From: Leucosporidium creatinivorum
Taxonomy: Eukaryota > Basidiomycota > Microbotryomycetes > Leucosporidiales > Leucosporidiaceae
Direction of reading: 5' to 3'
Assembly (NCBI GenBank): GCA_001600635.1
Contig: BCKL01000027.1
Location: forward strand, 37,075 to 101,074
Length of the DNA stretch: 64,000 bases
A model generated the notes under the pieces. The model ran no database searches. It was not told the DNA's origin and saw only the letters and a program-made list of their open reading frames with translations. Both the position numbers and the translations under genes were made by a program. Positions 53,445 to 55,676 of this stretch are shown one piece after another (the first letter of the stretch is position 1; every line of letters begins with the position of its first letter).

Positions 53445-55676
53445 ATGCTCGTGAGTCCTACACCGCCGTCTACTCCCTTACACCCGCTCAAAGTGGCCAA
53501 GGCGCGTGAGATTCGACGCGTCGAGGCGAAAGCTCCAACTTGGAGGTTTTGGGGGCTGCTGTAGGGTGCTGCAGGGTCTGCAAAAGGCTGCAGGACTATC
53601 AGCGGTACTCGCTTAGCGTAGCACACGCGCTGACACTATCTACACGTCCACAGGAAGCCCGCCTGGATCAAGCCGAGACTCTCAAGAAGGTGCGCTCGCT
53701 ACTCTATGCTCTGCAGCACTACAGAACAATCCTAACTGACTTTGGCTCACTCCACTACAGGTCCTCGAGGGTACGCCATGCTCCCCAGTCGCGTCTCGAT
53801 GGCTACGCGTCGCTCTCAAGCTCACCTCGTTCTCTGCTCACTTACAGCCGTCAAGGAGCTCGTCACCGACGCCAACTTTGACTGCACGGATGAGGGAATC
53901 GTGCGTACTGTCTCTGCGCCATTAAAGGCTTCCAGCTGAGATACAGGACTGACGCGCTGCCTCCCCCTCATCGCTTTTCCTCCGCCGTGCGTACTCGTCC
54001 GCTGCTCGCCATGTAACAGAAACTCCAAGCCATGGACAACTCCCACGTTGCCCTGGTCTCGCTCCACCTCGATGCCGCTGGCTTCAGCAACTACAGGTGT
54101 GACCGCGACATGTAAGCTCGTCCTGGCCTACCCATCTTCTCGACGCGTCGCTATGGCGGTCGCGTGGACTCTGCCTATGGCTCTCGGAGGATCTACTACT
54201 GACTCTAGACTTGCTCTATGACTGAACAGGTCCCTCGGAATGTCGCTCGCTTCGCTCCAGAAGATCATCAAGTGCGCGGGTAACAACGACGTCGTCACCC
54301 TGAGGGCCGACGAGAGCCACGACATCCTCGGTCTGCTGTTCGAGAACAAGGGTGAGCAGTTGCTCTCTACTCTGGTGCTCTCGGAGCGGCTAGCCGACCT
54401 CGAGACGAGAAGCAACGCGCGCCCCCGCTCCGGCTCGACGCGTCGATCGTACACGAGTACTGATCATCGCTACATCTCCCACAGAGCACGACCGCGTCGG
54501 CGAGTACGAGATGAAGCTCATGGATATCGACCAAGAGCACCTGGGCATCCCCGACACGGTCTACGACGCCGAGATCCAAATCCCCGCCGCCGAGTTTGCT
54601 CGCATCATCCGCGATCTCAAGGAGTTGGGCGAGAGCGTCAAGATTGAGGTGTCCAAGGATGGAGTGAGGTTCAGCTCCGAGGGAGATATTGGAAGTGCGG
54701 CGGTCACGCTGAAGCAGACTAGTGGGGCGGGCAAGGATGCCAGCGATGATGAGGAGGAGGAGGAGGAGGAGGAGGAGGAGGAGGAGGAGGAGGAGGAGGA
54801 ACCCAAGGAGGAGGAGGATGAGGATGTGAGTTTCTCGAGTCTCGCTCGGCGATATCGCTCTCCCCCTCCCGCCGAGCTTTTGCTGATCTCGCCTCCGTCG
54901 TTCACCAACCACGCAGGTCATCATCGAGGACGAGAAGCCCGAAGTCACGGCCACCGCCAAGGAAGGTTCCGGCTCGCCCGCTCCCAAGGCTTCGACCGCC
55001 GACGCCGACAAGGAGGACGACAAGGACGAGGACGAGAAGCCAGAGATTGAGATCGACTCGGACGACGAGGCGGCCACCAAGAAGCAGGTCAAGAAGGAGA
55101 AGGTCGTCAAGAAGGAGAAGGCCTCCAAGAAGAAGGACGCGTCGAAGAAGCGCAAGGCCGCGCCGTCGAAGAAGAGCAAGAGCACTGGGTCGAAGGAGAA
55201 GAAGGCCAAGAAGGAGGATACCCCTAGGGAGGTTCGCATCAACCTGCAGCAGGTGAATCCTCGCTCAACTCTCTCGTTGTCGACTGGCCCGACTGGGCTC
55301 CCTTCGGCGAGCTTCAAGCTGACCTCGCTCTGCTCTTCTGCCCTCCGCGAACCACAGGCCGTCTCCCTCACCTTCTCAATCAAGTACTTGTCCAACTTTG
55401 CCAAGTCGACACCTCTCAGCGACTACGTCCACGTGAGCCCATCTCCCTTCCCTTCCCGCTTCAATCTCGCCGTCGCTCCGAGCTGACCTTCCTTCCCCTC
55501 TTCTCACAGCTCCACATGTCCAACGAAGTCCCTCTCCTCGTCGAGTACCCCTTCGGACAAGGCCACATTCGCTACTACTTGGCCCCCAAAATTGCTGTAC
55601 GTTCTTCGCGCCGCCTCACTCCAGCTGAGCGCCGAGCTGACCCTCGCCTTCTCGTCCACACCCACAGGAGGAGTAA
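53445..55676 (+). CDS. POL30: PCNA, DNA sliding clamp, with a large charged insertion
   Basis: About eleven exons. The two-codon first exon (ATG-CTC, 53445) splices to [53 protein letters not shown] and [11 protein letters not shown], then [20 protein letters not shown]. The interdomain connector is [15 protein letters not shown]. Domain 2 has [20 protein letters not shown] and [20 protein letters not shown], keeping the lysine equivalent to human K164. After LKQTS, where human PCNA has eight residues before the next strand, this gene has about 139: Asp/Glu-rich, a 17-Glu run, then [17 protein letters not shown] and a Lys-rich stretch ([18 protein letters not shown]). The fold resumes with [40 protein letters not shown] and [16 protein letters not shown], stop at 55676. 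It is the trimeric clamp for replicative polymerases. Confidence 0.95.
53516..54443. promoter_or_regulatory. Four ACGCGT (MCB) boxes in POL30 introns
   Basis: ACGCGT occurs at 53516-53521, 53805-53810, 54143-54148 and 54438-54443, each followed by CG and each inside a different POL30 intron. Three are in the palindrome CGACGCGTCG. ACGCGT is the binding site of the MBF/DSC1 cell-cycle factor, which drives PCNA genes in other fungi; intronic action here is inference. Confidence 0.45.
54751..54801 (+). repeat. GAG trinucleotide repeat coding a glutamate run in PCNA
   Basis: Sixteen GAG codons and one GAA in a row, in frame in the POL30 insertion. Such repeats vary in length between strains. Confidence 0.95.

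What the first reader, a model, noticed from the sequence alone, without database searches (positions are those of the whole stretch)
54721..55250. PCNA with a roughly 139-residue charged insertion in the domain-2 loop
POL30 orthologues are strongly conserved at about 260 residues. Here the eight or so residues between LKQTS and the next strand are replaced by about 139: Asp/Glu-rich with 17 Glu in a row, then Ser/Thr/Ala/Pro, then a Lys-rich stretch with the NLS-like [12 protein letters not shown]. The insertion spans an intron, has no stop, uses the same GC-ending codons as the flanks, and its exon also carries the strand EVRINLQQ that PCNA needs, so it cannot simply be an unspliced intron. 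An acidic-then-basic tail looped out of each clamp subunit would put three polyampholyte arms on the ring. These could bind histones or chaperones, slow sliding on DNA, or add sites for modification. I know of no described PCNA like this.
Basis: partly seen in the sequence, partly recalled or inferred. Interest (0 to 1): 0.88.

Follow-up and report, generated by a model that had tools for sequence, protein, structure and literature searches.

The report
Fungal replication clamp with charged arm
The ring protein that holds DNA polymerase on DNA carries, in this yeast and in nearly every basidiomycete fungus looked at here, an extra charged arm with a nuclear-import-like signal that the sampled ascomycete, mucoromycete and chytrid relatives lack.

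Summary
The only PCNA gene found in this genome (POL30; 53445-55676, 11 exons, 388 aa) carries a 142-residue back loop where ascomycetes have about 11. The loop is open and coding, and of 63 in-frame splice alternatives scored, none that removes the arm uses a credible donor.

It is not peculiar to this species. At the same place 144 of 146 basidiomycete PCNA rows have 38 to 203 residues, against 4 to 12 in the 120 rows listed by a search from an ascomycete PCNA. The nearest relative is Leucosporidium. One case is in print: a 2022 review notes an insertion of over 80 residues in Cryptococcus neoformans (PMC9225081).

New, as far as I searched: the arm is spread over the phylum and built alike, an acidic run then a basic K[KR][KR][KR] core resembling a nuclear localisation signal (136 of 144 inserts, 30.8 expected from shuffles; 0 of 144 cores; 0 of 116 outgroup proteins). 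Many also carry SUMO-consensus VKKE sites.

My best mechanism, an importin-docking arm that returns the clamp to the nucleus after open mitosis, is inferred, not shown. RNA, protein and structure could not be tested.

The parts
53445..55676 (+). POL30 (PCNA) coding region, 11 exons: 53445-53450, 53654-53689, 53761-53770, 53848-53900, 54020-54111, 54230-54351, 54485-54825, 54917-55252, 55358-55432, 55510-55596, 55668-55676; 388 aa
   Evidence: model; Pfam PCNA_N 179 bits, PCNA_C 141 bits; full-length match to Leucosporidium P0001, 86%
54712..54825 (+). first part of the enlarged back loop (residues 183-220): KQTS linker and acidic run
54751..54801 (+). 17 consecutive Glu (residues 196-212), inside a GAG microsatellite 54751-54824
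54826..54916 (+). 91-nt phase-0 intron inside the insertion; a stretch that looks like a retained intron in the Rhodotorula pacifica protein (P0032) lies at the matching place, judged by eye
   Evidence: (P0032: VSSRALPPSSVVSSLTQQLLQ after DEDED)
54917..55228 (+). second part of the enlarged back loop (residues 221-324): acidic, Ser/Thr/Pro-containing, then Lys-rich
55046..55069 (+). IEIDSDDE (residues 264-271), resembles a SUMO-interacting motif with a CK2-type site (motifs recalled)
   Evidence: sequence only, function not tested
55088..55120 (+). [11 protein letters not shown] (residues 278-288), two psi-K-x-E SUMO-consensus sites in an 18-nt tandem repeat
55145..55156 (+). KKRK (residues 297-300), NLS-like basic core; the pattern K[KR][KR][KR] is in 136 of 144 basidiomycete inserts
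54655..54657 (+). Lys164, equivalent of the ubiquitin/SUMO acceptor K164
   Evidence: role from PMC7225939 (passages) and PMC9225081 (section 23)
55229..55252 (+). strand EVRINLQQ after the insertion, part of the PCNA fold

Best explanation
This is the single, normal PCNA of a Leucosporidium-like basidiomycete yeast. It has an old, phylum-wide insertion in the back loop (residues 183-195 of yeast PCNA), which by its name and position lies on the face that carries K164, away from the polymerase-binding face. The insertion would be a flexible arm, three per ring, made of an acidic run followed by a Lys-rich segment with a KKRK core. Proposed mechanism: the KKRK segment is an importin-alpha docking site that brings PCNA back into the nucleus after each basidiomycete open or semi-open mitosis, and the acidic run shields and tunes it and limits non-specific DNA binding. 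Once inside, the same arm may touch the DNA or histones behind the fork, and in lineages with VKKE sites it may take SUMO. Shown: gene model, single locus, position, wide conservation, motif enrichment. Inferred: disorder, importin binding, re-import, any DNA, histone or SUMO contact.
For: Insertion at the same site in 144 of 146 basidiomycete rows, lengths 38-203, against 11 (117 rows), 12 (2) and 4 (1) in the 120 rows. Outside the loop the protein hardly varies in length: N part 182 residues in 123 of 144, C part 64 in 107 of 144. K[KR][KR][KR] in 136 of 144 inserts (summed shuffle expectation 30.8), in 0 of 144 cores and 0 of 116 outgroup proteins. Among Ustilaginomycotina, the group with the shortest inserts (median 43), 20 of 20 inserts keep the core and put acid before base. 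Acid precedes base in 138 of 144. Paper passages: GFP-PCNA diffuses from the nucleus to the cytosol at mitosis in C. neoformans (PMC6392335); no closed mitosis reported in basidiomycetes while ascomycetes as a group are closed (PMC2951903); [quoted passage not shown]
Against: Animal and plant cells often divide with open mitosis (PMC10329083), yet the three plant rows have 11-residue loops and the solved chain 1axc_A (human, recalled) is 261 residues long. Rhizopus is thought to have open mitosis (PMC2951903), yet PMC9225081 reports no such insertion in Rhizopus, Mucor or Lichtheimia, and the Mucoromycota rows that I recognise here (Linnemannia, Actinomortierella, Geosiphon) have 11 residues. 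So the tie to open mitosis is not general. K[KR][KR][KR] is easy to reach in Lys-rich sequence, and 8 of 144 inserts lack it. A looser motif K[KR].[KR] also occurs outside the insert in 41 of 144 basidiomycete proteins. Three entries lack all or most of the arm (P0035, P0138, P0175), though each looks like a gene-model or contamination case.
Confidence: 0.42

Rival explanations
1. Electrostatic chromatin arm. The acidic segment binds histones and the Lys-rich segment binds the DNA behind the fork, so the clamp slides more slowly or hands histones to CAF-1; it works like the basic tail of human p15PAF, which leaves the ring at the back face and binds DNA.
For: Acid-then-base order in 138 of 144 inserts; an acidic run (7 of 8 D/E) in 139 of 144 against 27.3 expected from shuffles (groups summed); back-face position (PMC7225939 passages, PMC9225081 section 23); the p15 tail at the back face binds DNA (PMC7225939, PMC6182140 passages).
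Against: Ustilaginomycotina arms of about 43 residues have few lysines after KKRK. A CAF-1 large-subunit domain is present in this genome, so nothing needs replacing. No binding data.
Confidence: 0.22
2. Modification platform. Psi-K-x-E sites in the arm are SUMO acceptors that supplement K164; the yeast K127 SUMO site is absent here. IEIDSDDE could bind SUMO.
For: [VI]KKE in 46 of 49 Agaricomycetes (expected 3.1) and 24 of 44 Pucciniomycotina (expected 3.1). A PINIT (Siz/PIAS-type) locus and 14 ubiquitin/SUMO-fold (PF11976) matches are in the genome. No Lys at the K127 place: IDCL reads [20 protein letters not shown].
Against: Only 6 of 30 Tremellomycetes and 0 of 20 Ustilaginomycotina have [VI]KKE, so this is unlikely to be the ancestral role. 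In the window the two sites lie in an 18-nt tandem repeat, so local duplication adds to the count. PF11976 is not specific to SUMO. The CK2-type pattern [ST][DE].[DE] is not enriched in any of the four larger groups.
Confidence: 0.14
3. Tolerated low-complexity expansion. A loop on the free face of the ring grew by repeat slippage and is kept because it does little harm.
For: GAG microsatellite 54751-54824 and 18- and 24-nt repeats in the Lys-rich part; length varies from 38 to 203 among relatives.
Against: Kept in 144 of 146 rows over five groups; order and basic core kept while length changes; loop length 11-12 in 119 of 120 rows of the ascomycete-based search.
Confidence: 0.15
4. Annotation or splicing artefact: the insert is intronic and the mature protein is of ordinary size.
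For: Three deposited models omit all or most of the arm (P0035, labelled partial; P0138, a second Sporisorium scitamineum model; P0175, filed under a bird but with a Tremellomycete-like sequence). A 2002 Coprinus cinereus paper has 'Alternative truncation' in its title (seen only in a reference list).
Against: Open frame with matching third-position GC; the 14 in-frame alternatives that drop both acidic run and KKRK all need a donor far below the gene's own. Nine short contigs (1159-1703 nt) encode whole PCNAs and leave only 106 to 488 nt outside the reading frame, against 1065 nt of introns in this gene, so they are probably spliced transcripts, and nine of nine keep the arm.
Confidence: 0.04

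Closest known systems
Cryptococcus neoformans PCNA (back-loop insertion of over 80 residues, PMC9225081)
   Same: Same loop; the listed entry P0162 has acidic stretches and a KKRK core in the insert; same phylum.
   Different: 344 aa in all and a different sequence, with acidic and basic parts more mixed. The review compared it with 14 other fungi and calls the insertion absent in the rest; section 23 does not describe the arm's pattern or its spread.
Leucosporidium PCNA (P0001, 396 aa)
   Same: Full-length match 86%; insert 117 of 139 aligned residues identical, N part 175 of 182, C part 58 of 64.
   Different: Acidic run interrupted; insert 8 residues longer.
Coprinus cinereus PCNA (Hamada et al. 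2002; title seen only in a reference list)
   Same: Basidiomycete PCNA; the 49 Agaricomycete rows here have 104-147 residue loops.
   Different: The paper is not held, so whether it described the insertion or its splicing is unknown to me; its title says 'Alternative truncation'.
PDB PCNA chains 7wp3_A, 5h0t_A, 5hac_A, 6j0j_A (289-302 aa; I recall these as Leishmania, the tool gives no organism)
   Same: In 7wp3_A, extra charged residues in the same loop (alignment); the other three match over the same stretch but their alignments were not shown.
   Different: Roughly 30 residues more than usual by chain length; no KKRK in the aligned part.
Human p15PAF tail on PCNA
   Same: Disordered tail at the back face, basic, binds DNA (PMC7225939, PMC6182140 passages).
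   Different: A separate protein, not part of the clamp; functional analogy only.

Membership tests
PCNA (eukaryotic sliding clamp) | PCNA_N and PCNA_C domains | tested here: met
   PF00705 3.2e-53 over residues 1-124, PF02747 2.6e-41 in 2 stretches
PCNA (eukaryotic sliding clamp) | Conserved K164 and interdomain connector loop | tested here: met
   window EVSKDGVRF with K at 164, [24 protein letters not shown]; the K164-like pattern that I used matched 133 of the 146 basidiomycete rows
PCNA (eukaryotic sliding clamp) | Only PCNA locus of the genome | tested here: met
   all matches at E <= 0.001 lie in this locus (contig C27); only best candidates are scored and the assembly may be incomplete
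PCNA (eukaryotic sliding clamp) | Homotrimeric ring loaded by RFC | not testable with these tools
   structure prediction switched off
Basidiomycete long-back-loop PCNA (grouping proposed here) | Back loop of 38 or more residues at the same site | tested here: met
   window 142; 144 of 146 basidiomycete rows
Basidiomycete long-back-loop PCNA (grouping proposed here) | Acidic segment before basic segment with K[KR][KR][KR] | tested here: met
   window KKRK at 297-300; 136 of 144 have the core; acid before base in 138 of 144
Classical nuclear localisation signal | Basic core consensus | tested here: met
   (consensus recalled)
Classical nuclear localisation signal | Binds importin alpha and drives import | not testable with these tools
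   needs binding and localisation experiments
SUMO acceptor region | Psi-K-x-E consensus conserved across the group | tested here: inconclusive
   [VI]KKE 46 of 49 Agaricomycetes, 24 of 44 Pucciniomycotina, 6 of 30 Tremellomycetes, 0 of 20 Ustilaginomycotina, 1 of 1 Dacrymycetes

The most novel reading that the evidence does not exclude
At the origin of Basidiomycota, PCNA gained its own classical nuclear import signal on an acidic-basic arm of the back face. The clamp, which leaks out at each open mitosis, then returns to the nucleus by itself, and the arm was later elaborated, separately in different subphyla, into a SUMO-acceptor and chromatin-contacting platform that trails behind the replication fork. 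A core replication part thus acquired a phylum-specific regulatory limb.
Probability: 0.3. Interest if true: 0.78.

Novelty: new variant of a known kind. Interest (0 to 1): 0.56.

Why it matters
PCNA is very constant in length: 119 of the 120 rows of the ascomycete-based search have a back loop of 11 or 12 residues. A phylum with three long charged arms per ring would mean that rules of clamp loading, sliding, import and modification learnt in ascomycete yeast and human cells may not carry over to basidiomycetes. The arm is a discrete element that can be deleted precisely, so its role in nuclear import, chromatin assembly or SUMO control can be tested directly.

Tried and rejected
Unspliced or alternatively spliced intron: rejected as main explanation on splice-site scores and on probable transcripts in relatives. 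On first reading I took 54722-55227 for an in-frame alternative; one search shows that it is not in frame, and I dropped it. Second ordinary PCNA gene: none found. Pseudogene: no frame break, and 86% identity to P0001. CAF-1 replacement (arm standing in for a lost CAF-1): a CAF1A domain is present. SUMO platform as ancestral role: disfavoured because Ustilaginomycotina lack the sites. My first anchor script failed on 54 of 121 sequences and was replaced by an alignment-based one. tRNA and Rfam scans of the window gave nothing.

Literature: ten searches. Seen as passages only: PMC4030836, PMC8357120, PMC548137, PMC7225939, PMC6182140, PMC7255605, PMC10329083, PMC6392335, PMC2951903, PMC4550699, PMC5305215. 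Section 23 read in full plus passages: PMC9225081. Of these only PMC9225081 mentions a basidiomycete PCNA insertion. PMC8357120, on clamp evolution, has no occurrence of insertion, basidiomyc, disorder or loop.

Counting limits: each protein search lists only its best 120 (of 2311, 2619 and 4230 hits), and searches used insert-bearing queries, so basidiomycetes without the insert could be under-listed. Groups were assigned by me from names; nine unnamed proteins (P0012, P0039, P0041, P0047, P0048, P0058, P0062, P0067, P0105) were placed by similarity, and the window counts as one of the 146. Of those 30, 29 have at least 36 residues and P0189 has 11. P0175 (filed as a bird; 13), 3 plant (11), 7 chytrid (11-12), 1 mucoromycete (11) and 2 ascomycete rows (11) were kept apart. 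Related species are not independent, so shuffle expectations are a guide, not a probability. That the arm is disordered, and that it arose once, were not tested.

Full report
What is there. The window holds POL30 on the + strand. Joining exons by GT..AG and by similarity gives 11 coding exons (53445-55676), 388 residues, every intron ending in CAG. Pfam finds only PCNA_N and PCNA_C at E <= 0.001, the latter in two stretches. The closest listed protein is from Leucosporidium (P0001, 396 aa, 86% over the full length), so the source is probably a Leucosporidium-like Microbotryomycete. The genome (27.7 Mb, 63 contigs) shows PCNA matches at this locus only.

The insertion. Residues 183-324 stand where ascomycetes have about 11. 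The loop begins [13 protein letters not shown], has 17 Glu, a Ser/Thr/Pro-containing middle, [19 protein letters not shown] and [12 protein letters not shown], and returns to strand EVRINLQQ. Third-position GC is 0.88 in frame and 0.62 and 0.33 in the other frames. The acidic run lies in a GAG microsatellite (54751-54824) and the VKKEK part in an 18-nt tandem repeat, which suggests how length can drift. The internal intron 54826-54916 is phase 0. In the Rhodotorula pacifica protein P0032 a stretch starting VSS and ending LQ, which looks like a retained intron, lies at the matching place, after DEDED (by eye). This suggests that the intron predates the split of the two genera.

Could it be spliced out? 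One search lists 63 in-frame GT/AG alternatives within the ranges scanned. Fourteen lose both the acidic run and KKRK and give proteins of 242-270 residues. All fourteen use donor GTCACG at 54703 (-3.0; the gene's ten donors score 5.9 to 8.6 on the same matrix), remove the residues VTLKQTS before the loop, and have a best sum of -1.7 against 16.7 for the modelled intron. The matrix rests on ten introns, so this is a guide. Nine short contigs (P0012, P0039, P0041, P0047, P0048, P0058, P0062, P0067, P0105; 1159-1703 nt) encode full PCNAs with little room for introns; nine of nine keep the arm. They are probably transcripts, although the listing does not say so. Contrary entries: P0035 (Rhodotorula sp. 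JG-1b, partial, 18 residues), P0138 (a second Sporisorium scitamineum model, 2 residues; P0126 from the same species has 41) and P0175 (filed as a bird, sequence Tremellomycete-like, 13 residues). P0076 and P0091 seem frame-shifted inside the arm, by eye.

How widespread. Measured with alignment anchors, loops of 30 or more residues occur in 44 of 45 Pucciniomycotina (median of the 45: 144), 49 of 49 Agaricomycetes (130), 30 of 30 Tremellomycetes (78), 20 of 21 Ustilaginomycotina (43) and 1 of 1 Dacrymycetes (99). Together that is 144 of 146, the smallest 38 and the largest 203. In the 120 rows listed by the search from the ascomycete Saitoella (named rows mainly ascomycetes, with some Mucoromycota, chytrids and plants; many unnamed) the loop is 11 residues in 117, 12 in 2 and 4 in 1. 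Seven chytrids and one mucoromycete have 11-12. The rest of the protein keeps its length: N part 182 residues in 123 of 144, C part 64 in 107 of 144. The simplest reading is one gain at the base of Basidiomycota followed by lineage-specific growth; I did not test it with a tree, and the capped, insert-bearing searches could under-list exceptions.

What is conserved. Sequence drifts but plan does not. Acidic residues precede basic ones, by mean position, in 138 of 144; the exceptions are four Tremellomycetes, one Pucciniomycotina and the one Dacrymycete. K[KR][KR][KR] is in 136 of 144 inserts against 30.8 expected when each insert's residues are shuffled, in none of the 144 cores, and in none of 116 outgroup proteins. 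A looser K[KR].[KR] is found outside the insert in 41 of 144 basidiomycete proteins and in 1 of 116 outgroup proteins, which weakens the contrast for weak signals. The shortest arms (Ustilaginomycotina) read essentially acidic run, mostly KP (16 of 20), then KKRK or a like core, which I take as the minimal unit. KKRK-x(5-14)-KKxK, a bipartite-like form, is in 46 of 49 Agaricomycetes, 26 of 30 Tremellomycetes, 23 of 44 Pucciniomycotina, 0 of 20 Ustilaginomycotina and 1 of 1 Dacrymycetes. [VI]KKE SUMO-consensus sites are frequent in Agaricomycetes (46 of 49) and Pucciniomycotina (24 of 44), rare in Tremellomycetes (6 of 30) and absent in Ustilaginomycotina (0 of 20). CK2-like sites ([ST][DE].[DE]) are not enriched.

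Mechanism. Papers place the 'back loop' at residues 183-195 (PMC9225081, section 23) and K164 on the back face, opposite the polymerase side (PMC7225939 passages). Arms there should not block polymerase binding (inference). Among the near-universal elements the NLS-like core is the one with an obvious known use, hence my preference for nuclear import. Two observations from papers fit: GFP-PCNA spills into the cytosol when the nuclear envelope ruptures in C. neoformans mitosis (PMC6392335 passages), and no closed mitosis has been reported in basidiomycetes whereas ascomycetes as a group have it (PMC2951903 passages). Against this, plant and animal cells often divide openly without such an arm, and the Mucoromycota seen here or in PMC9225081 lack it although Rhizopus is thought to divide openly. 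DNA or histone contact and SUMO are rivals that may coexist. PINIT, PF11976 and CAF1A domains are present in the genome but say little.

Known or new. PMC9225081 (section 23) reports an insertion of over 80 residues in C. neoformans PCNA, absent in the other 14 fungi compared, so the kind is in print in one sentence. A Coprinus cinereus PCNA paper of 2002 exists (title only) and may bear on it. In ten searches of the held library and the papers opened from them I found no statement of a phylum-wide arm or of the NLS-like core; most subscription papers are not in that library. Four solved PCNA chains (7wp3_A, 5h0t_A, 5hac_A, 6j0j_A) match the query into the acidic part; for 7wp3_A the alignment shows extra charged residues in this loop. 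I recall these as Leishmania.

Verdict. Real, coding, conserved and functionally unexplained. Ordinary for its phylum as sampled, unusual among the other PCNAs seen. Mechanism open, with nuclear import as the leading and easily tested idea.

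Noticed in passing
window 53445-53450, 53761-53770, 55668-55676: POL30 is very intron-rich with tiny coding exons: a 6 nt first exon (Met-Leu), a 10 nt exon 3 and a 9 nt last exon; the model needs them to give the conserved PCNA sequence.
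   Followed up: partly
window 54751-54824: Coding GAG microsatellite (24.7 copies) encoding the acidic run; likely to be length-polymorphic between strains.
   Followed up: no
P0175: A PCNA filed under the bird Spelaeornis/Elachura formosa on a 1163-nt contig looks like Tremellomycete yeast contamination with the middle of the arm missing from the model.
   Followed up: partly
P0113 and P0032: Deposited models of Pisolithus tinctorius and Rhodotorula pacifica PCNA seem to contain retained introns inside the arm (by eye; P0105 resembles P0113 without the extra stretch).
   Followed up: partly
PDB chain 7wp3_A, residues about 179-212: A solved PCNA has a shorter charged insertion in the same loop (organism recalled as Leishmania), so this loop may have been extended more than once.
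   Followed up: partly
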